Assembly: GCA_028874995.1 (NCBI GenBank)
Contig: JAPPGM010000174.1
Location: forward strand, 1 to 37,896
Direction of reading: 5' to 3'
Length of the DNA stretch: 37,896 nucleotides
Source: Gemmatimonadota bacterium
Lineage (GTDB): Bacteria; Gemmatimonadota; Gemmatimonadetes; Longimicrobiales; Gaopeijiaceae
Shown: one piece after another, positions 15,041 to 25,273 of the stretch
Layout: the number at the start of each line of letters is the position of its first letter
Numbering within the stretch: the stretch's first letter is position 1
Notes under the pieces: model-generated
Databases searched by the model: none
What the model was told of the DNA's origin: nothing
The model's input: the letters and a program-made list of their open reading frames with translations, nothing else
Program-made: the position numbers and the translations under genes

Positions 15041-15160
15041 GGGGCAGCTCCCAGCCGGGCTCGGCGTCCACTCCGTGCAACCATTCGGCACCAGATGTTG
15101 TCCTCGTGTCGGCCACATCGATTCCCATGGGGAGCACTCCACCCGACGAAGGAGGATTCA

Positions 15161-15865
15161 GTGAGTACCAGTCCCGAACGCCTGACCCGTGCGATCCGCT
15201 GGCTCCAGGCCTACGCCGCCCTTTTGACCATTGCCCTGGTGGTCCTGTTCTTCAGGAGCGGGACGAGCGCGGACGATGTGCTGCGCACGCGCGGACTGAT
15301 CATCGAGGACGAAGCCGGACGGGAACGGATCCTCATCGGCGCGCCAATTCCCGAGGCCGCCAACCGCGTTCGCACCGACGAAGCGCGTGTGCGGGAGGTC
15401 TGGGCGTCCCGGTATGAGGACGGGGAAGCCTATATGGGCTACTACCAGGACTATCGCCACGAGGCCAACGGCATCCTGATCCTCAGCGAGGACGGCTTCG
15501 ACCGGGTTGTGCTGGGCGATCCGGTGCCCGATCCGAACATCGGCAGGCGGATCGCGCCGAGCACGGGCTTGGTGATCAACGACATGCAGGGATTCGAACG
15601 GACGGGGTACGGAGTATTGGTTGTCGACGGCACCTATCGCGTGGTCTTGGGCCTCGACTCGAATCGTGGCCGGGAGGGCCTCGTATTGATGCTGGAGGAT
15701 GACGGCAGGGTCGGCGTCACCGTGGGCCATGGAGATGACATGATCTTTCTTGGCGACCTGCCCGCCGGTCTCGGGTGGTGGGGCCTCACGGAGCTGGTCC
15801 GAGGGCTGGTGATTGCGAAAGATGGCGAGATCATCCATCAGCTCAATGGCGCAGAGGAAAAGTGA
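15161..15865 (+). CDS. Membrane-anchored protein with four 'G-hh-I-x-D-x-x-G-x-x-R' beta repeats
   Basis: The 234-residue product starts at GTG 15161, which has an excellent AAGGAGG site 6 bases upstream. One membrane helix (about residues 13-33, LQAYAALLTIALVVLFF) precedes an exported region made of imperfect repeats: GLIIEDEAGRERILIGAPIP, GILILSEDGFDRVVLGDPVP, GLVINDMQGFERTGYGVLVV and GLVLMLEDDGRVGVTVGHG. The pattern G-hydrophobic-x-I-x-D-x-x-G-x-x-R-hydrophobic-G recalls short beta repeats seen in many uncharacterised bacterial proteins that follow an N-terminal helix. No catalytic motif is visible and I assign no function. It lies 120 bases after the ABC exporter and is followed by a hairpin-rich spacer. 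Confidence 0.75.
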   Translation: MSTSPERLTRAIRWLQAYAALLTIALVVLFFRSGTSADDVLRTRGLIIEDEAGRERILIGAPIPEAANRVRTDEARVREVWASRYEDGEAYMGYYQDYRHEANGILILSEDGFDRVVLGDPVPDPNIGRRIAPSTGLVINDMQGFERTGYGVLVVDGTYRVVLGLDSNRGREGLVLMLEDDGRVGVTVGHGDDMIFLGDLPAGLGWWGLTELVRGLVIAKDGEIIHQLNGAEEK

Positions 15866-15952: not shown

Positions 15953-15969
15953 AGGGCCGTTTCGGCCCT
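15953..15969. terminator. GC hairpin between converging genes, possible terminator
   Basis: AGGGCCG, loop TTT, CGGCCCT: a perfect 7-bp stem. It overlaps the stop codon of the ankyrin gene (minus) and follows the plus-strand beta-repeat gene, so it could act on both transcripts. No T-tract is seen on either side, so the call is moderate. Confidence 0.4.
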
Positions 15970-18900
15970 ACCTCGCCGCGGAGGGCCCAGGATTGGGTCG
16001 CCTGACGGGCGTCCCCCGCAACCGCATCACCACTTCCAGCCCCTGCAGCGCGACGTTCTCCCTGGCGTAGTCCATTGGGGTCCTGCCTATGTCGTCGAGC
16101 GCCGCGGTATCGGCGCCCAGCGCGAGCAGCATCTGGAAGGCGGCGGCGGCCCTCCTCGCCGCTCCGTGCAGAGCCGTCTGGCCGCGCTGGTCGCGCGCTT
16201 CCAGATCGGCACCCGCGCGCACCAGCATCTCGATAATCTCCGGGTTTCCCCCGCGGAGAGCCGCCATGTGCAGCACGGTCGCCCCCCGTTCCTCCGGGAT
16301 CGTCATCGTGGCCGCCCCCTCCATCATCAAGGGAATCGACGCGCTGGTCACCCGTGCGTTGACGTCGGCTCCCGCTTCAATGAGCGCCGTCACGATCGCC
16401 GGGTCGCGGGTCACCCCGGCCGCTTCGAGCAGGGGCGTCCTGTTTCCGTACGCCCAGTGCGAGTCCGGAAACTCTGCCCGTGCCTCCAGTTCCGCTCCCG
16501 CGTCCAGCAGGACGGCGAGCACCGCCGGGTTCGAGGTCCGGCCGACCGCCTCGTGCAGCACCGTCCATCCCGTCGACCCTCGGGCGTGTACGTCGGCGCC
16601 GGCCTCGAGCAGCAGGGCCGCGACCGCGGGGTTGTCGTTTCCCGCCGCCTGGGAGAGCGGGGTCTCTCCCTCGTAGCCCCTGGCGTGCAGGTCGGCGCCC
16701 GCTTCCAGCAGGACCGCGGCGACTCCCGGGTCCTCGTTGTCCGCCGCCGCCACGTGCAGCGGTGTCCAGTCCCACCCGTAGTGGATGTGATACCCCTTGG
16801 CCCGTGCGTCCACCTCCGCGCCGGCCTGCAGCAGCGCCCGCACCATGGCCGGAGTCCCGTGCTGCGCAGCCAGGTGGATGGGCTGGTAGTTGTCGTTGTC
16901 GCGTGCATGTATGTCCGCGCCAGCCTCCAATAGCACCGAGACGACCGCGGTGTCCCGAGTCAATGCGTAGGCCACGTGCAGGGGTGTGGAGCCCGTCGTA
17001 ACGGCGCGGGACCTCTCCGTCCTCGCATGGACATCCGACCCGGCCGCGATGCAGCCGGAGACCTGTTCCGCTTCGGCGAGCGCGAAGAAGACCGGGGTGT
17101 TCCAGTGCTCACAGCTGAACGGGTCGGCCACCATGCCGGAATCGGTGCGCGCGGCCGGGTCCGCCCCCAGTTCCAGCAGCCGGGTGGTGACGGCGGGATT
17201 CTCTTCCCTTACGGCCAGGTGCAGCGGAGTTTCCCCGCGCCCGGTTCGTGCGTTGACGTCGGCACCGGCCCGCACAAGCAGCGAGACCATGCCGTCGTTG
17301 TCGTTGGACCAGGAGGCCGCGGCGCTGTGGAGCGGCGTACGGCCCAGGTCGTTACGTGCGTTGACGTCGGCTCCCCGTTCCAGCAGGGCAGACGCGACGG
17401 CGTTCCCGGCCGCGGGCGTGTTCGCGGCTGAATGGAGCGGGGTCGATCCATGCTCGGTCCGCTCGTTCACGTCCGCGCCGGCCTCCAGAAAGAGACGCAA
17501 CATGGCAATGGTGACATCTCCGCGGAACCCCACGCCCAATCGATGCAACGGCGGATCACCGTATTCGTTCCTCGAATCCAGCGGCGTGCCTGCTTCGATG
17601 CATCCGCGGACGCTCTCGACGGTGGCTGCATCGAAGAAGCTGTAGTCGCTCCAGTCGCAGATCGGACCGGGAATCATCCCACGGGTGTTGCGGGCCTGCG
17701 CGTCGGCGCCCAGCGAGAGAAGCCGCTCGATGACGGCGGGGTTGTCGTGTTTCCATGCCGTGTGCAGCGGCGTATCACCCGCCTCGTTGCGCGCGTTCAC
17801 ATCCGCCCCGGCTTCCACGAGCGCGGACAGGATGGTCGCATCGGCGTGAGCCGTTGCCAGGTGGGACGGTGTGTCGCCCTGGCCGGTGCGCGCGTCGACG
17901 CTCGCGCCCGCCTCGATCAGTGCGGCCACATTGTCCAAGCGCCCCTTCCGGGCCGCCCAGTGCAGCGGCGTCTCACCGTCGTCGGTCGCGGCTTCAGGAT
18001 CCGCGCCGACGTCCACCAATGCGGTGACGGTACGGGGTTGACCATACTCGGCCGCCACGTGGAGCGGCGACCGTCGCTCATAGCCCGGCAGATTCGGATC
18101 CGCCCCCGCCTCCACGAGCGCACGAATCACGCCCGGGCCCGCTTCCCAGGCCGCCGTCTGGAGCGCGTGCCCCCCGTACCTCGTCTGGATGTTCGGATCC
18201 GCGCCATGCGCCAACAGCTTTCTGGTGAGCCCGCTTAGCGTATCGGCCTCGTACCCGCTCAGCGACAGGTGGAGGGGAGTCCTCTCGAAGAACGACTCCG
18301 GGATGTCGACATCCGCCCCAGCCTCCAGGAGGGCATCGATGACGACCGTATTGGGGCGCCGCCCCATGATGCCCACCGCCAGAATCAGCGGCGTCACTCC
18401 ATCCCCACCACGTGCATTCACATCCGCGCCCGCCTCCAGCAGCATCTTCACGATCGTCGCCGCCGAGTTCCGGGCGGCAGCGTGCAGCGGAGTGTTCCCT
18501 CCTTCGCTCTCCGCGGCTGCGTCCGCCCCCGCTTCCAGCAGGGCGGTCGCAACGGCCAGGTTCTCATTCGCCGCCGCGATATGGAGTGGTGTGGTGCCGC
18601 CATTGTTGGCCACCCCGGCCGCCACACCGGCATCCAGCAGCAGCGTGGCAATGGCCGGATCCGGGTTGGAAGCCGCGTGGTGCAGGACGGTGGTGCCGTA
18701 GGCATCCGTCACTCCGATGTCGGCGCCGGTGTCCATACAGAAGCTGTAGACGGCAAAGTCGGCCGCGAGGGGGAATACCGGAGTCAGCCAGAGCTCACAG
18801 TCGGCCGGATTCGCGATCAAGCCGTCGTCGTTGCGCGCAAGCGGATCGGCGCCCGAACGCAGCAGTTCTTCCACCGCCGCCTGGTTGATCCGGGGATCCT

Positions 18901-19372
18901 GCCAGGGCATGTCGACGCCGGGGTTGCTCCAGGCGCTGTGCAGAGGCGTGTCGCCGCGGGAATCGCGGGCGTTGACGCCGGCGCCGGCCTCCAGCAACGC
19001 GGCGATGATGCCCGGGTTCAGATTCCAGCGCGCGGCTTCGTGCAGTGGTGTGAGACCGCTGAAGTCCTGCGCGCTCACGTCGGCGCCGGCCTGCACGAGG
19101 ACGCCGATGACGGTCGCGTCCGGCGCCAGCCGCGCGGCACGGTGCAAGGGAGTCCCGCCGCTTTCGTCCACCGGAGCGGAAGGGTCCGCGCCCGCGCCAA
19201 GACAGGCCAACACAGTGTCCGCCGAGGCCGTGTGGAAGAAGTTGTACGCGCCCCAATCCCCGCAGGCGGTGGGGCCGGGGTCGGGTGGGGGCTGGGCGGT
19301 GGTGGGGGTCGGTGCGGTCGCCAGGACACCGCACAGGAGGAAGAGGGAACCGATCGATACGGGGTTTTTCAT
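15968..19372 (-). CDS. Large exported ankyrin-repeat protein with four Cys-paired cap modules
   Basis: The 1134-residue product has a signal peptide (MKNPVSIGSLFLLCGVLATA, cleavage near TTAQ) and about 27 ankyrin-like repeats of the 'GxTPLHxAA...LLEAGADVNAR' type. Four short non-canonical segments interrupt the solenoid at residues 37-57, 192-212, 572-591 and 754-774. Each begins with Cys, has an aromatic/Phe-rich middle and ends 'V..C...G', and they contain all eight cysteines of the mature protein, so disulfides outside the cytoplasm are likely. They divide the protein into blocks of roughly 155, 380, 182 and 380 residues. A strong GGGAGGAG site lies just before ATG 19372. It is the downstream neighbour of the two protease genes on the same strand, 152 bases after the nearer one. 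Ankyrin proteins bind other proteins; the partner is unknown, and the adjacent proteases are candidates. Confidence 0.92.
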   Translation of the reverse strand: MKNPVSIGSLFLLCGVLATAPTPTTAQPPPDPGPTACGDWGAYNFFHTASADTVLACLGAGADPSAPVDESGGTPLHRAARLAPDATVIGVLVQAGADVSAQDFSGLTPLHEAARWNLNPGIIAALLEAGAGVNARDSRGDTPLHSAWSNPGVDMPWQDPRINQAAVEELLRSGADPLARNDDGLIANPADCELWLTPVFPLAADFAVYSFCMDTGADIGVTDAYGTTVLHHAASNPDPAIATLLLDAGVAAGVANNGGTTPLHIAAANENLAVATALLEAGADAAAESEGGNTPLHAAARNSAATIVKMLLEAGADVNARGGDGVTPLILAVGIMGRRPNTVVIDALLEAGADVDIPESFFERTPLHLSLSGYEADTLSGLTRKLLAHGADPNIQTRYGGHALQTAAWEAGPGVIRALVEAGADPNLPGYERRSPLHVAAEYGQPRTVTALVDVGADPEAATDDGETPLHWAARKGRLDNVAALIEAGASVDARTGQGDTPSHLATAHADATILSALVEAGADVNARNEAGDTPLHTAWKHDNPAVIERLLSLGADAQARNTRGMIPGPICDWSDYSFFDAATVESVRGCIEAGTPLDSRNEYGDPPLHRLGVGFRGDVTIAMLRLFLEAGADVNERTEHGSTPLHSAANTPAAGNAVASALLERGADVNARNDLGRTPLHSAAASWSNDNDGMVSLLVRAGADVNARTGRGETPLHLAVREENPAVTTRLLELGADPAARTDSGMVADPFSCEHWNTPVFFALAEAEQVSGCIAAGSDVHARTERSRAVTTGSTPLHVAYALTRDTAVVSVLLEAGADIHARDNDNYQPIHLAAQHGTPAMVRALLQAGAEVDARAKGYHIHYGWDWTPLHVAAADNEDPGVAAVLLEAGADLHARGYEGETPLSQAAGNDNPAVAALLLEAGADVHARGSTGWTVLHEAVGRTSNPAVLAVLLDAGAELEARAEFPDSHWAYGNRTPLLEAAGVTRDPAIVTALIEAGADVNARVTSASIPLMMEGAATMTIPEERGATVLHMAALRGGNPEIIEMLVRAGADLEARDQRGQTALHGAARRAAAAFQMLLALGADTAALDDIGRTPMDYARENVALQGLEVVMRLRGTPVRRPNPGPSAAR

Positions 19373-19524: not shown

Positions 19525-22137
19525 TCAGCGCTCCCATTCCACCGCGTCCGGAAGCCCGCGGCTGAACAGGACCTCAAGCCCCGGCTCCGGTGACAGGGCA
19601 ACCGCGTCCGCACGTGTGCTGCCCGGCGAGAGACCGGTGAAGATCCCCCGAATCCGCCCGGTACGCGGATCCCGGATGATCGCCCCCGCGCGCTCACTCT
19701 CCCCGTCCAGCGAGACGGAGCCCCCGGGACCCGTCAGCGAGATACGCACCAGGTCGCTGCCCCACGAGGTTTCCGCCGGGATGGCGAAAACGAAGGACGA
19801 GCCTCCCTCTCCATCGGCCGTTTCCGTCATGGCGAAGCTCAGCGAGAAAAGCTCGCGCCCGTTCACGCCGACGCCCGTCAGCCGGTACGGACCCGGCTCC
19901 CTTGGCAAGGACACCCCATCATCCAGGACGAATGCCGGCTCCAGATGGGGCGTGCCGTCCGCACCCACACCACCCCAGACGAGCAGCGAAGGCCCCGCGG
20001 CGCTCGGAGTCGGCCTGTCGTCCAGATCTCCCAACTCGAACCGGTACCGGAACATGTTCGAGTAGTAGTACTCACTGACCCAAATGTCGGGACCGCAGTA
20101 CGACATGAAGTCGGGCTTGGTGGGCGGAACGAGCACGCCGCCGGCCATCCTGTATCCCCACGCCCCGATCTTTCCGGTGGGATCGGGGAACATCGGGTCG
20201 GTGTTCGTCAGATTGGGACCGCAATCGGCGTGCAGCAGGCCGAGGTTGTGTCCGAGTTCGTGAACCATGACCCAGGCATCTGGAATGGAGAAGCTCGACC
20301 AGCCCGTGCCGATGGTGGAGACCCCCGGGTAGTTCGCCTGGCTCGCCGACAGGGTGCCCATGAAGTAGCCCCGGCCGCTCTCCGCGACCCGGATCGCTTC
20401 CGTCCGTCTCTGTAGCACGAGTGGAGAGGTCGTGTTGGTGGAAACGGGTTCGTGCACCGTCAGGTCCACCTCACGCACCGGCATGAGCGTCCTAATGCCC
20501 CAGAGCAACGTGTCCTCCGCCGTCATTCCGTCGGTGAGTTCCAGTAGTGAGGAGTCCGGATCCGGGGCATAGAGGAACGGGATCAGCGTAAGGGGTAGTA
20601 CGGGCATTTCCCGCACGTCCAGGCCGGTTCGGCCGGTTTCGGGGATCCGTGTGGCCACTCCCAGTTCCGGATCCATCGTGCCGTCCGGGTCGATCTCGAC
20701 CACCATCTCCAGCCCGGGACGAATCACCGAAGCGGGAACCACGGCGTTGGCCGAGGACGCCAAGTCGTCTTCGCCCACCTCATCGCGGATGAAAGACGAA
20801 TCAGGAGTGATCTCCACGACCTCCGCTTCGGCTCCGTCCAGGTAGAAGGTCGCCCGAACCGGTGGGATCAGCTGTCCCGCTGCCTCGGGCGCAACCACGA
20901 AGACGCGCAGCAGCGCCTCCTCGCCCGCGACCAGCGAAACGGGGAACTCCCTCGACTGTACCTGCTGCACCAGATAGGCGGCGGACACGGTCTCCGGTCC
21001 CGTGCAGGGGGCGACCCGTTGTTTCTGCACGCCCCTCAGCCATTTCCGGAAATGCTCGTCGTCGGGACCGCACAGTTCGGTGCCCCCCGTCAGAAGCGTG
21101 TCCAGCGCCTCAATCTCGGTAAGGCCGAGGGGCAGAGTTCCCGACATGCCGGTCTTCGTCAGATTGAGACCGGTCAGGGTGGACAGGCGGCCGATGTCCT
21201 CGGGCAACGAGCCGGTTATCCTACCGTTGTACAATAGACTCAGGTTGGCGAGGTGGGGCATCCTGACGATCCCGGGTGGAATCGTTCCCGTGAGATACCC
21301 CCCTCCCAGATCGAGGTTGCGAAGCTCGGTATGACCGCCCAGTTCCGGAGGCAGGGGACCCGACACGCCGCTGCCGCGGAGATCCAGGGTTCGCAGGCGG
21401 GGCAGTCCGAGGAAGTCGCTCAGCGTCGTGGTTCCCATGTCAGTGTACGAGAGGATGAGTTCTTCGAGCATCTCCAGCTCGTAGAGTTCGGGGGGCGGTG
21501 TCCCCACCTCGGGGTTGTAGCCGAGATCGAGCACCTTGAGCATCTCCATGCGCCCGAGCTCGGGCGGCAGGGTGCCATTCATGTTGTTCCACGGAAGTTC
21601 CAGCCCTGTAACCCGCCCCTGCCCGTCGACCTCGACGCCGTCCCATTCGCCAAGGGGCGCGTCGGTCAGCCAATTCCCGCGCTGCACCCATTCGGATCCA
21701 CCGGTGGCGTTGTACAGCGACATCAGACCCGCCCGGTCCGGATCCACTATCACCGTGATCGCCGACGTCGCAGAAACCGAATCCGCCGTAGCCCTGATCG
21801 TGGCATCGCCCTCGGCGGCGGCGCGCACGAACCCTGATGGGCCCACCGTCGCTACCGCCACGTTGCTGCTGGACCATGAGACCGGAAATCCGGCAATCAC
21901 CCGCTCATACTCATCGTGGACCCAGGCTACCAGCCCGACGGTGTCGCCCACGCTGGTCAGCAACGCCGTCTCCGGGGTTACGGTGATCGACGCCGGTGGG
22001 GGGAATTGGGGAAGCGTGGGTTCGTCATCGCATGCCGGCGTCGCGATCGTCGAGAAGGCGGCCGCAATGGCGATCGCCGGGACCAGCTTCGGGGGTGCTT
22101 GGGGTGATCTCCGACTGGCTCCATGGGTCGGCCGCAT
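19525..22137 (-). CDS. Big2-LRR-metzincin zinc protease lipoprotein, copy 1
   Basis: An 870-residue lipoprotein (lipobox-like TPAC, Cys 36, followed by Asp-Asp). Residues about 50-130 form a Big2-type immunoglobulin-like domain (ITVTPETALLTSVGDTV, VSWSSSNVAVATV). Residues about 135-345 are plant-type LRRs starting LYNATGGSEW and containing repeats such as LPPELGRMEMLKVLDLGYN and LTGTIPPGIVRMPHLANLSL. After a linker of about 270 residues comes a metzincin site, HELGHNLGLLH (626-636), with the Met-turn in DFMSYCGP (Met 678). The last 160 residues look like beta-rich accessory domains. The likely role is a cell-surface or periplasmic protease whose LRRs choose the target; this is inference. The ATG is preceded by AAGGAGAG at 6 bases. 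It is paralogous to the gene at 22595-25195 and is followed by the ankyrin gene. Confidence 0.9.
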   Translation of the reverse strand: MRPTHGASRRSPQAPPKLVPAIAIAAAFSTIATPACDDEPTLPQFPPPASITVTPETALLTSVGDTVGLVAWVHDEYERVIAGFPVSWSSSNVAVATVGPSGFVRAAAEGDATIRATADSVSATSAITVIVDPDRAGLMSLYNATGGSEWVQRGNWLTDAPLGEWDGVEVDGQGRVTGLELPWNNMNGTLPPELGRMEMLKVLDLGYNPEVGTPPPELYELEMLEELILSYTDMGTTTLSDFLGLPRLRTLDLRGSGVSGPLPPELGGHTELRNLDLGGGYLTGTIPPGIVRMPHLANLSLLYNGRITGSLPEDIGRLSTLTGLNLTKTGMSGTLPLGLTEIEALDTLLTGGTELCGPDDEHFRKWLRGVQKQRVAPCTGPETVSAAYLVQQVQSREFPVSLVAGEEALLRVFVVAPEAAGQLIPPVRATFYLDGAEAEVVEITPDSSFIRDEVGEDDLASSANAVVPASVIRPGLEMVVEIDPDGTMDPELGVATRIPETGRTGLDVREMPVLPLTLIPFLYAPDPDSSLLELTDGMTAEDTLLWGIRTLMPVREVDLTVHEPVSTNTTSPLVLQRRTEAIRVAESGRGYFMGTLSASQANYPGVSTIGTGWSSFSIPDAWVMVHELGHNLGLLHADCGPNLTNTDPMFPDPTGKIGAWGYRMAGGVLVPPTKPDFMSYCGPDIWVSEYYYSNMFRYRFELGDLDDRPTPSAAGPSLLVWGGVGADGTPHLEPAFVLDDGVSLPREPGPYRLTGVGVNGRELFSLSFAMTETADGEGGSSFVFAIPAETSWGSDLVRISLTGPGGSVSLDGESERAGAIIRDPRTGRIRGIFTGLSPGSTRADAVALSPEPGLEVLFSRGLPDAVEWER

Positions 22138-22594: not shown

Positions 22595-25195
22595 TCAGCG
22601 CTCCCATTCCGCCGCGTCCGGAAGCCCCCGGCTGAACAGGACCTCAAGCCCGGGCTCGGGTGACAGAGCGACCACTTCCGCACGCGTCGTGCCCGGTGCG
22701 AGACCGGTGAAGATCCCCCGAATCCGCCCGGTGCGGGGATTTAGCACGATCGCCCCCGCGCGCTCACTCTCCGCGTCCAGCGAGACGAAACCCTCGGGAC
22801 CCATCAGCCCGATACGCACGAGGTCGCTGCCCCACGAGGCCTCCGCCGGGACGGCGAACACGAAGGACGAGCCTCCCTCTCCGTCCTCCGTTTCCGTCAT
22901 GTGGAAGCTCAGGGAGAAAAGCTCGCGCCCGTCCGCGCCGACACCCGTCAGCCGGTACGGACCGGTCTCCCGCGGCAAGGTCACGGCACCATCCAGGACG
23001 AACGCCGGCTCGAGGAAGGGCGTGCCGTCCGGCCTCACACCACCCCAGACGAGCAGCGAAGGCCCAGCGGCGGTCGACCCGTCGTCCACATCTCCCAACT
23101 CGAACCGGTACCGGAACATGTTGGAGAAGAAGTAGTCGCTCACCCACACGTCGGGACCGCAGTACGACATGAAGTCGGGCTTGGTCGGCGGGACGAGCAC
23201 GCCCTCGGCCATCCTGTATCCCCACGCACCTATCTTACCGTTGCGGTCGGGAAACGCCGGGTCGGTGTTCAACACATTGCGACCGCAAGGGGCGTGCCAT
23301 AGGCCCAAGTTGTGTCCGAGCTCGTGAACCATGACCCAGGAATCGGGTATGGAGAAGCTCGACCAGCCGGCAGAGGAGGCCCCCGGGAAATCCGCCTGGC
23401 TCGCCGGAAGGATTCCCATGAAGTAGCCCCGGCCATTCTCCGCAACCCGGATCGCTTCCGTCTGGGTCACCAGCGCGAATGGACTGGTCGTGTTGGTGGA
23501 AACCGGCCCGTGTACCGCCAGGTCCAGCTCGTGCACCGGTATGAGCGTCCGGATGCCCCACAGCAACGTGTCCCCCGCCGTCATTCCGTCGGTGAGTTCC
23601 AGTAGTGAGGAGTCCGGGTCGGGGGCGTAGAGGTACGGGATCAGCGTAAAGGGCAGAACGGGCATCTCCCGCACGTCCAGGCCGGTCCGGCCCGTCTCGG
23701 GAATCCGTGTGGCCACTTCCAGTTCCGGATCCATCGTGCCGTCCGGGTCGATCTCGACCACCATCTCCAACCCGGGGCGTATCACCGAAGCGGGGATCAC
23801 GGCGTTGGCCGAGGACGCGAGTTCGTCTTCGCCCACCACATCACGGATGAACGACGAATCCGGGGTGATCTCCACGACCTCAGCTTCGGCTCCGTCCAGG
23901 TAGAAGGTCGCGCGAACCGGAGGAATCAGCTGTCCCGCCGCCTGTGGCGCAACCACGAACACGCGCAGCAGCGCCTCCTCGTCCGCGACGAGTGGAACGG
24001 GGAACTCTCTCGACTGCACCTGCTGCACCAGATAGGCGGCGGACACGGTGTCCGGTCGCGTGCAGGGAGCGACCCGTTGTATCTGCACGCCCCTCAGCCA
24101 TTTCCAGAAATGCTCTTCATCGGGCCCGCACAGTTCGGTGCCTCCCGTCAGAAGCGTCTCCAGCCCCTCGATCTCGGTCAGGCCGAGGGGCAGAGTTCCG
24201 GACATGCCGGTCCCCGTCAGATTGAGACCGGTGAGGGTGGACAGGCGGCCGATTCCTTCGGGCAACGAGCCGGTTATCCGGGCGTTGCCGCGGAGACTCA
24301 GGTTGGCGAGGTGGGGCATCTCGACGATCCCGGGAGGAATCGTTCCAGTGAGTAGCCCCAATCCCAGATCGAGGTTGCGAAGCTCGGGATGACCAGCCAG
24401 TTCCGGGGGCAGGGTACCCGACACGCCGCTCCCGTAGAGATCCAGCGTCCGCAAGCGGCGCAGGCTGAGGTAGTCCCTCAGCGTCGTGGCTTCCACGTTA
24501 TTGTACGGGAGGTGGAGCTCTTCGAGCGACTCAATCCCGTACAACTCGGCGGGCAACGGTGCTACCAGATAGTTGAACCCGAGATTGAGCACTCTGAGCA
24601 TCTCAAGGTTGCCGATTTCGGGCGGTAGGGACCCCTCCAGGTTGTTCGCCGACAGATCCAGCCCTGTCACCCGCCCCTGCTCATCGACTTCGACGCCGTA
24701 CCATTCGCCGAGGGGCGCGTCGGTCATCCAATTCCATCGCACCCACCATTCGGATCCTCCAGTGGCGTGGTACAGCGACATCAGACCCGCGCGGTCCGGA
24801 TCGAGTACCACCGTGATCGCCGACGTCGCAGAAACCGAATCCGCCCTAGCGGTGATCGTGGCCTGGCCCTCGGCGACGGCGCTCACGAACCCTGATGGGC
24901 TCACCGTCGCTACCGCCACGCTGCTGCTGGACCATGAGACCGGGAATCCGGCAATCACCTGCCCAAACTGATCGTGGACCTCGGCTACCAGCCCGACGGA
25001 GTCGCCCGCACTGGTCAGCAACGCCGTCTCCGGGGTTACGGTGATCGACGCCGGCGGGGGGAATTGGGGAAGCGTGGGCTCGTCATCGCACGCCGGCGTC
25101 GCGATCGTCGAGAAGGCGGCCGCAATGGCGATCGCCGGGACCAGCTTCGGGGGTGCTAGGGGTGATCTCCGACTGGCTCCATCGGTCGGTCGCAT
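22595..25195 (-). CDS. Big2-LRR-metzincin zinc protease lipoprotein, copy 2
   Basis: The 866-residue paralogue of the 19525-22137 gene has the same layout: lipobox TPAC (Cys 36), Big2-like domain, LRRs, HELGHNLGLWH (624-634) and the DFMSYC Met-turn. Two 2-residue gaps (near SSAGWSS and DVDDGSTAAG) explain the length difference. By hand alignment residues 401-500 are about 93% identical to copy 1, but 171-250 (the first LRRs) only about 59%. Protease function should be retained because every zinc ligand is present. I chose ATG 25195, preceded by AAAGGAGAG; an open frame continues to 25267 but starts in the leader. The gene is first in line, with its own promoter at 25274-25304. Confidence 0.9.
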   Translation of the reverse strand: MRPTDGASRRSPLAPPKLVPAIAIAAAFSTIATPACDDEPTLPQFPPPASITVTPETALLTSAGDSVGLVAEVHDQFGQVIAGFPVSWSSSSVAVATVSPSGFVSAVAEGQATITARADSVSATSAITVVLDPDRAGLMSLYHATGGSEWWVRWNWMTDAPLGEWYGVEVDEQGRVTGLDLSANNLEGSLPPEIGNLEMLRVLNLGFNYLVAPLPAELYGIESLEELHLPYNNVEATTLRDYLSLRRLRTLDLYGSGVSGTLPPELAGHPELRNLDLGLGLLTGTIPPGIVEMPHLANLSLRGNARITGSLPEGIGRLSTLTGLNLTGTGMSGTLPLGLTEIEGLETLLTGGTELCGPDEEHFWKWLRGVQIQRVAPCTRPDTVSAAYLVQQVQSREFPVPLVADEEALLRVFVVAPQAAGQLIPPVRATFYLDGAEAEVVEITPDSSFIRDVVGEDELASSANAVIPASVIRPGLEMVVEIDPDGTMDPELEVATRIPETGRTGLDVREMPVLPFTLIPYLYAPDPDSSLLELTDGMTAGDTLLWGIRTLIPVHELDLAVHGPVSTNTTSPFALVTQTEAIRVAENGRGYFMGILPASQADFPGASSAGWSSFSIPDSWVMVHELGHNLGLWHAPCGRNVLNTDPAFPDRNGKIGAWGYRMAEGVLVPPTKPDFMSYCGPDVWVSDYFFSNMFRYRFELGDVDDGSTAAGPSLLVWGGVRPDGTPFLEPAFVLDGAVTLPRETGPYRLTGVGADGRELFSLSFHMTETEDGEGGSSFVFAVPAEASWGSDLVRIGLMGPEGFVSLDAESERAGAIVLNPRTGRIRGIFTGLAPGTTRAEVVALSPEPGLEVLFSRGLPDAAEWER

Positions 25196-25273
25196 GGCGG
25201 ACTCTCCTTTGCGGCTGCCTTCAACGCCTGGCCCTGCCGCGAAGAACAACGCGGACGAGGGCAACACCTACAT

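What the first reader, a model, noticed from the sequence alone, without database searches (positions are those of the whole stretch)
15968..19372. All mature cysteines of the ankyrin protein form four evenly spaced pairs in repeated cap modules
After the signal peptide the protein has exactly eight Cys: 37/57, 192/212, 572/591 and 754/774, spaced 20, 20, 19 and 20. Each pair brackets a similar non-ankyrin-like segment (C-x-x-W or C-D-W, Phe-rich middle, 'V..C...G') that opens a new block of ankyrin repeats. An exported ankyrin solenoid built from disulfide-capped blocks is an unusual higher-order architecture and may mark a new extracellular module.
Basis: partly seen in the sequence, partly recalled or inferred. 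Interest (0 to 1): 0.72.

Follow-up and report, generated by a model that had tools for sequence, protein, structure and literature searches.

The report
Disulfide-pinned caps in secreted ankyrin proteins
A bacterium related to sponge-associated Gemmatimonadota exports a large family of about 1,100-residue binding-type (ankyrin) proteins, each apparently built as four ankyrin blocks whose first repeat carries an invariant, probably disulfide-bonded cysteine pair; this is an undescribed way of stabilising such proteins outside the cell.

Summary
The segments are not non-ankyrin. AlphaFold2 models of cap 1 superpose on the N-capping repeat of DARPins, with Cys2 at the core-Leu position of helix 2 and Cys1 just before helix 1. 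Caps 2 and 3 bound the longest continuous ankyrin solenoid in the model. The genome encodes 14 exported paralogues. In related genomes 46 proteins examined have the same four-cap layout, and 177 of 184 of their caps best match the same ordinal cap. With both Cys columns masked in the profile, 224 of 226 full caps carry both Cys. 85 of 88 mature proteins have an even Cys count. Small single-cap relatives, some apparently lipoproteins or C-terminally membrane-anchored, suggest a single-capped precursor. A DsbA-like gene sits beside VKOR. No Pfam family or solved structure covers the whole cap. Best reading: Sec-exported, disulfide-stapled N-capping ankyrin repeats fused into a four-block extracellular binder with unknown targets (possibly the sponge host). 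Cys-Cys distances could not be measured, no bond was shown, and range outside Gemmatimonadota is hardly tested. New variant of a known kind.

The parts
15968..19372 (-). gene for exported four-cap ankyrin protein, 1134 aa (P0001)
   Evidence: open reading frame, Ank Pfam E 1e-135
19295..19372 (-). Sec signal peptide, residues 1-26 (cleavage about TTA|Q)
   Evidence: hydrophobic core and AxA-like site before first Cys; same in all 14 paralogues by sequence inspection and hydropathy; no dedicated signal-peptide predictor available
19175..19264 (-). cap 1, residues 37-66, Cys37/Cys57
18824..19174 (-). block 1 ankyrin repeats
   Evidence: AF2 and repeat register
18710..18799 (-). cap 2, residues 192-221, Cys192/Cys212
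   Evidence: Cys 15/15; solenoid match begins here
17681..18709 (-). block 2, longest run of ankyrin repeats
   Evidence: ankyrin-1 7v0x Z 38.2, rmsd 2.5 over 356 residues, model 165-532
17573..17659 (-). cap 3, residues 572-600, Cys572/Cys591, spacing 19
   Evidence: Cys 13/15 at each column; one of the two exceptions lacks both
17135..17572 (-). block 3 ankyrin repeats
   Evidence: AF2 helix pairs and repeat register
17024..17113 (-). cap 4, residues 754-783, Cys754/Cys774
   Evidence: Cys 14/15 and 15/15
16019..17023 (-). block 4 ankyrin repeats to C-terminus
   Evidence: AF2 helix pairs; C-terminal tail has low pLDDT

Best explanation
The protein is a Sec-exported ankyrin protein made of four ankyrin blocks. 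Each block starts with an N-capping ankyrin repeat of the DARPin type (short Phe helix, Trp, helix 2). I infer that this cap is closed by a disulfide between a Cys just before helix 1 and a Cys that replaces the buried core Leu (repeat position 23) of helix 2. The staple would keep the exposed first repeat of each block folded outside the cell. The bonds would be made after export by the genome's DsbA-like/VKOR pair. The four-block chain then acts as a multivalent binding scaffold. Its concave-face positions vary most while framework and Cys stay fixed, and the gene is amplified in arrays, as expected for a repertoire of surface or secreted binders. In sponge-associated relatives the partners may be host molecules. 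Shown: the Cys pairs, their conservation as pairs, the ankyrin-cap fold in prediction, the four-block architecture, amplification, presence of oxidising enzymes. Inferred: export (from signal peptides and anchored relatives), the bond itself, which enzyme makes it, the surface or extracellular end point, and the binding function.
For: Cys pairs exact. Conserved in paralogues. Masked profile 224/226 full caps with both Cys. Even Cys count in 85 of 88 mature proteins, 47 with exactly 8; at least two of the three odd ones contain Cys in stretches that look out of frame. Extra caps come with both Cys, and a paralogue lacking cap 3 lacks both. AF2 of block 1: pLDDT 88.8, pTM 0.86, Cys1 in a short helix, Cys2 in helix 2. 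Superposition on DARPins from N-cap onwards, e.g. 2qyj model 11-163 on 13-162, 1mj0 7-163 on 12-166, Z about 19, rmsd 2.4-2.7 over about 140 residues. Continuous solenoid bounded by caps 2 and 3. Signal peptides in all 15 proteins. Single-cap relatives with lipobox-like N-termini or a C-terminal hydrophobic helix followed by Arg. VKOR E 2e-26 beside a DsbA-like gene, and a DsbA-like CSAC protein beside one ankyrin cluster. Four-cap order kept: 177/184. dN/dS 0.52-0.90 at concave positions 2, 3, 5, 10, 13, 14 against 0.01-0.21 at most core framework positions (6-9, 11, 12, 23, 27-29) with similar average pS.
Against: No coordinates, so no Cys-Cys distance. No direct evidence of oxidation. High dN/dS at exposed positions may be relaxed constraint; no class exceeds 1, and some convex positions (18, 21) reach 0.5-0.6. 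One paralogue (C171:57041) keeps only the second Cys of a cap-like segment near its C-terminus. The window genome's own habitat is not known; sponge association is inferred from record names of relatives. Outer-membrane passage is unexplained: one secretin gene only.
Confidence: 0.8

Rival explanations
1. The Cys pairs form metal sites or redox switches (free thiols) rather than structural disulfides.
For: Two Cys 20 apart with a nearby Trp could in principle bind metal; vicinal CC pairs occur in the repeat after some cap 3 variants.
Against: The cap consensus shows no conserved His and no third Cys; signal peptides and anchored relatives place the protein in an oxidising compartment; spacing varies 18-26 without loss of the pair, unusual for a metal ligand set.
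Confidence: 0.07
2. The Cys make bonds between caps or between molecules, linking blocks or chains into a fibre or a multimer.
For: Even Cys count fits any pairing; the cap lies at a block boundary.
Against: Small relatives with a single cap still have the pair, some with no other mature Cys; a paralogue lacking cap 3 lacks both Cys while its other caps remain intact.
Confidence: 0.1
3. Same fold and bonds, but the role is not host binding: a periplasmic or envelope scaffold, inhibitor or partner of the neighbouring secreted LRR metallopeptidases.
For: Upstream genes on the same strand are two paralogous LRR-Big_2 proteins with HELGHNLG motifs; no outer-membrane route identified; some relatives look membrane- or lipid-anchored.
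Against: The other own-genome ankyrin clusters are long arrays on other contigs, not obviously tied to such peptidases (flanks not surveyed in full); amplification and concave-face variation suggest many partners.
Confidence: 0.35
4. Pairs are kept only because the paralogues are young copies, without a functional need.
For: Tandem arrays, duplication within the genome.
Against: Aligned proteins from different genomes are about 47% identical and many synonymous sites differ (pS about 0.4), yet caps keep both Cys, including in single-cap relatives of another family.
Confidence: 0.03

Closest known systems
Ankyrin repeat (Pfam PF00023/PF12796); ankyrin-1 solenoid
   Same: 33-residue helix-loop-helix repeats; block 2 superposes on ankyrin-1 (Z 38)
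   Different: exported; split into blocks by reiterated Cys-paired N-caps
DARPin / natural N-capping ankyrin repeat
   Same: first repeat with modified surface that closes the core; superposes from N-cap onwards
   Different: adds Cys before helix 1 and Cys at core position 23, Trp and Phe-Phe; occurs inside the chain three more times. PDB matches to the cap profile cover only helix 2 and the GAD tail in the rows shown
Ankyrin-repeat eukaryote-like proteins of sponge symbionts (Nguyen 2014, cited in PMC8163846)
   Same: ankyrin proteins in sponge-associated bacteria; Gemmatimonadota ankyrin proteins 0.25% of genes in sponge MAGs against 0.09% in seawater MAGs (PMC8163846)
   Different: the passages read there do not mention Cys caps or Sec export; function here untested
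Legionella Dot/Icm ankyrin effectors (NCBIfam AnkY, AnkH and others)
   Same: ankyrin repeats only
   Different: scores far below the curated cut-offs; signal peptide present

Membership tests
Ankyrin repeat protein | tandem 33-residue repeats with TPLHxAA and GADxNA, helix-loop-helix | tested here: met
   Pfam E 1e-135; AF2 helix pairs; PDB superposition
Ankyrin N-capping repeat (DARPin type) | first repeat superposes on N-cap and precedes regular repeats | tested here: met
   cap 1 by model; cap 2 by solenoid match starting at 163-168; caps 3 and 4 only by secondary structure and sequence
Disulfide-stapled cap | paired Cys conserved together | tested here: met
   224/226 with Cys columns masked; 85/88 even counts
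Disulfide-stapled cap | Cys-Cys within bonding distance / bond formed | not testable with these tools
   no coordinates returned; no experiment
Sec-exported protein | signal peptide with AxA site | tested here: met
   15/15 by inspection and hydropathy, no dedicated predictor
Dot/Icm ankyrin effectors | score over NCBIfam equivalog cut-off | tested here: not met
   AnkY 284 of 600 bits, AnkH 226 of 600
Sponge-symbiont ankyrin proteins acting on phagocytosis | sponge-associated host | tested here: inconclusive
   relatives in MAGs named RHO1, RHO3, SB0662; reading RHO as Rhopaloeides odorabile and SB06 as a sponge sample is from memory; a paper search for SB0662 did not help
Sponge-symbiont ankyrin proteins acting on phagocytosis | changes phagocytosis when expressed | not testable with these tools
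   needs experiment

The most novel reading that the evidence does not exclude
The cap is a new extracellular module: a disulfide-stapled ankyrin N-cap that lets bacteria export ankyrin binders through Sec, and that was multiplied into a diversifying repertoire of host-interacting proteins in animal-associated Gemmatimonadota, giving a delivery route for symbiont ankyrin proteins in lineages that lack classical effector secretion systems.
Probability: 0.35. Interest if true: 0.72.

Novelty: new variant of a known kind. Interest (0 to 1): 0.55.

Why it matters
Ankyrin repeats are usually thought of as cytosolic and free of disulfides. A conserved cap that looks disulfide-pinned shows how nature may adapt the fold to the outside of the cell, and gives a simple sequence signature to recognise exported ankyrin binders. 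PMC8163846 notes that few sponge-symbiont lineages encode the secretion systems that would deliver eukaryote-like repeat proteins; Sec export plus oxidative folding would make at least part of this repertoire testable. The cap could also be a design part for stable extracellular DARPins.

Tried and rejected
Chance clustering of Cys: rejected. 'Non-ankyrin module': rejected by structure. Type IV effector membership: scores below cut-off. Cap in viruses: none in IMG/VR with the patterns used; matches in phages and plasmids are to ankyrin repeats in general as far as inspected; the three plasmid proteins read (Salinibacter, Thermus, Mycobacterium) have no cap and no Cys pair. Cap in Pfam: only 2 of 46 caps weakly match Ank, plus three stray weak hits. 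Search outside Gemmatimonadota was limited to phages, plasmids, viral contigs and one pattern scan of genome contigs, so absence elsewhere is not shown. Positive selection: no ankyrin position class above dN/dS 1. The Cys-Cys row is circular (only Cys-Cys pairs entered it) and is not used.

Full report
OBSERVATION. The gene at 15968-19372(-) encodes 1134 aa. Cysteines are at 14 (signal peptide), 37, 57, 192, 212, 572, 591, 754 and 774. For eight random Cys the chance of four pairs spaced 19-20 is about 1e-8.

WHAT THE SEGMENTS ARE. Read in ankyrin register, Cys2 stands at position 23, the core Leu of 'LLEAGAD'. The Phe-rich part takes the place of 'PLHxAA'. AlphaFold2 on the mature protein with nine relatives from other genomes gives pLDDT 83.5, pTM 0.51. 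Block 1 alone gives pLDDT 88.8, pTM 0.86, with the cap at 90-96. Its best PDB matches are DARPins aligned from their N-cap (Z about 19). In the full model the part matched by solved ankyrins runs from 165 to 546. That is Cys192 to about Cys572: one solenoid between two caps. The tools give no coordinates, so Cys-Cys distance stays unmeasured.

FAMILY. The genome (4.5 Mb) holds 14 more such proteins, in arrays on three contigs. All have a signal peptide ending shortly before the first Cys. Aligned Cys columns are 13-15 of 15. An ordinary ankyrin protein of the same genome (C161) has an ordinary start and no pairs. Most genomes of the same genus carry caps, with very unequal numbers (0 to 59 matches); in the phylum 39 of 395 genomes do, in two families. 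Named relatives are Gemmatimonadota MAGs, several with what I take to be sponge sample names. The placement of the window genome itself is not known to me; one relative is called Longimicrobiales.

PAIR CONSERVATION. I masked both Cys columns in the profile and searched 107 ankyrin ORFs (frames with ankyrin-like motifs; some are fragments) of many genomes. 224 of 226 full cap matches carry both Cys. The count of Cys in the mature part is even in 85 of 88 proteins. These counts are not independent, because the proteins are related. Spacing varies (18-26) yet the pair stays.

ORIGIN. Small proteins with one cap and a few repeats occur in other genera and another family of the class. Some look like lipoproteins (L109, L113, L117, L118, L120). 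Some have a signal peptide at one end and a hydrophobic helix plus Arg at the other (L111, L114-L116), which places the cap outside the cytoplasm. In 46 four-cap proteins of other genomes, caps at positions 1-4 are best matched by the profile of the same position in 177 of 184 cases, and the blocks have similar lengths. So the four-block fusion is old, and whole genes were then duplicated. That a single-cap protein was the starting point is inferred, not shown by a tree.

OXIDATIVE FOLDING. VKOR and a membrane-anchored DsbA-like gene are neighbours. A second DsbA-like protein with CSAC lies beside one ankyrin cluster.

FUNCTION. Between related copies, non-synonymous change is highest at the concave-face positions 2, 3, 5, 10, 13, 14 (dN/dS 0.52-0.90) and low at most core framework positions (6-9, 11, 12, 23, 27-29; 0.01-0.21), with similar average synonymous change; position 4 (0.49) and some other positions fall between. 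This fits a diversified binding face, though relaxed constraint on exposed positions fits too. Sponge MAGs are enriched in ankyrin proteins but few lineages there have effector secretion systems (PMC8163846). A Sec-exported, disulfide-stabilised ankyrin would need none of these for the first membrane. How it would pass the outer membrane is open (one secretin). Host binding is inference, about even with a role in the cell envelope.

NOVELTY. No Pfam model covers the cap; the PDB matches shown reach only helix 2 and the GAD tail. The papers I searched did not describe it, but the library is incomplete. I call it a new variant of the ankyrin repeat.

Noticed in passing
window 19525-22137(-) and 22595-25267(-): Tandem paralogous exported proteins with LRR, Big_2 and a HELGHNLG zinc metallopeptidase motif (weak Peptidase_M57/M66 matches), directly upstream of the ankyrin gene.
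   Followed up: partly
window 26944-30759(-): Sortilin-Vps10/BNR-repeat protein, E 2e-28; the long frame extends upstream of the probable start.
   Followed up: no
L035 (C136) proteins and their relatives: Cap 3 variants with long spacing (23-26) are mostly followed by a vicinal CC in the next repeat ('CCADFENV'); 'DRCCW' vicinal pairs occur in a few block 4 repeats. Possible vicinal disulfides.
   Followed up: partly
L032, C93:19113 protein, residues 93/127 of the open frame: Two Cys at the same ankyrin position in neighbouring repeats, a possible cross-repeat disulfide.
   Followed up: no
L104 (C50): DsbA-like (CPVC) gene next to a VKOR gene, a complete oxidative folding pair.
   Followed up: partly
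C93:7273 protein (1797 aa) and L066, L067: A five-cap ankyrin protein of about 1,800 aa with similar cap positions is found in another family of the class; it may be an old orthologue.
   Followed up: no
window 15095-15865(+): 256-aa membrane-anchored protein without any Pfam or NCBIfam match next to the ABC transporter.
   Followed up: no
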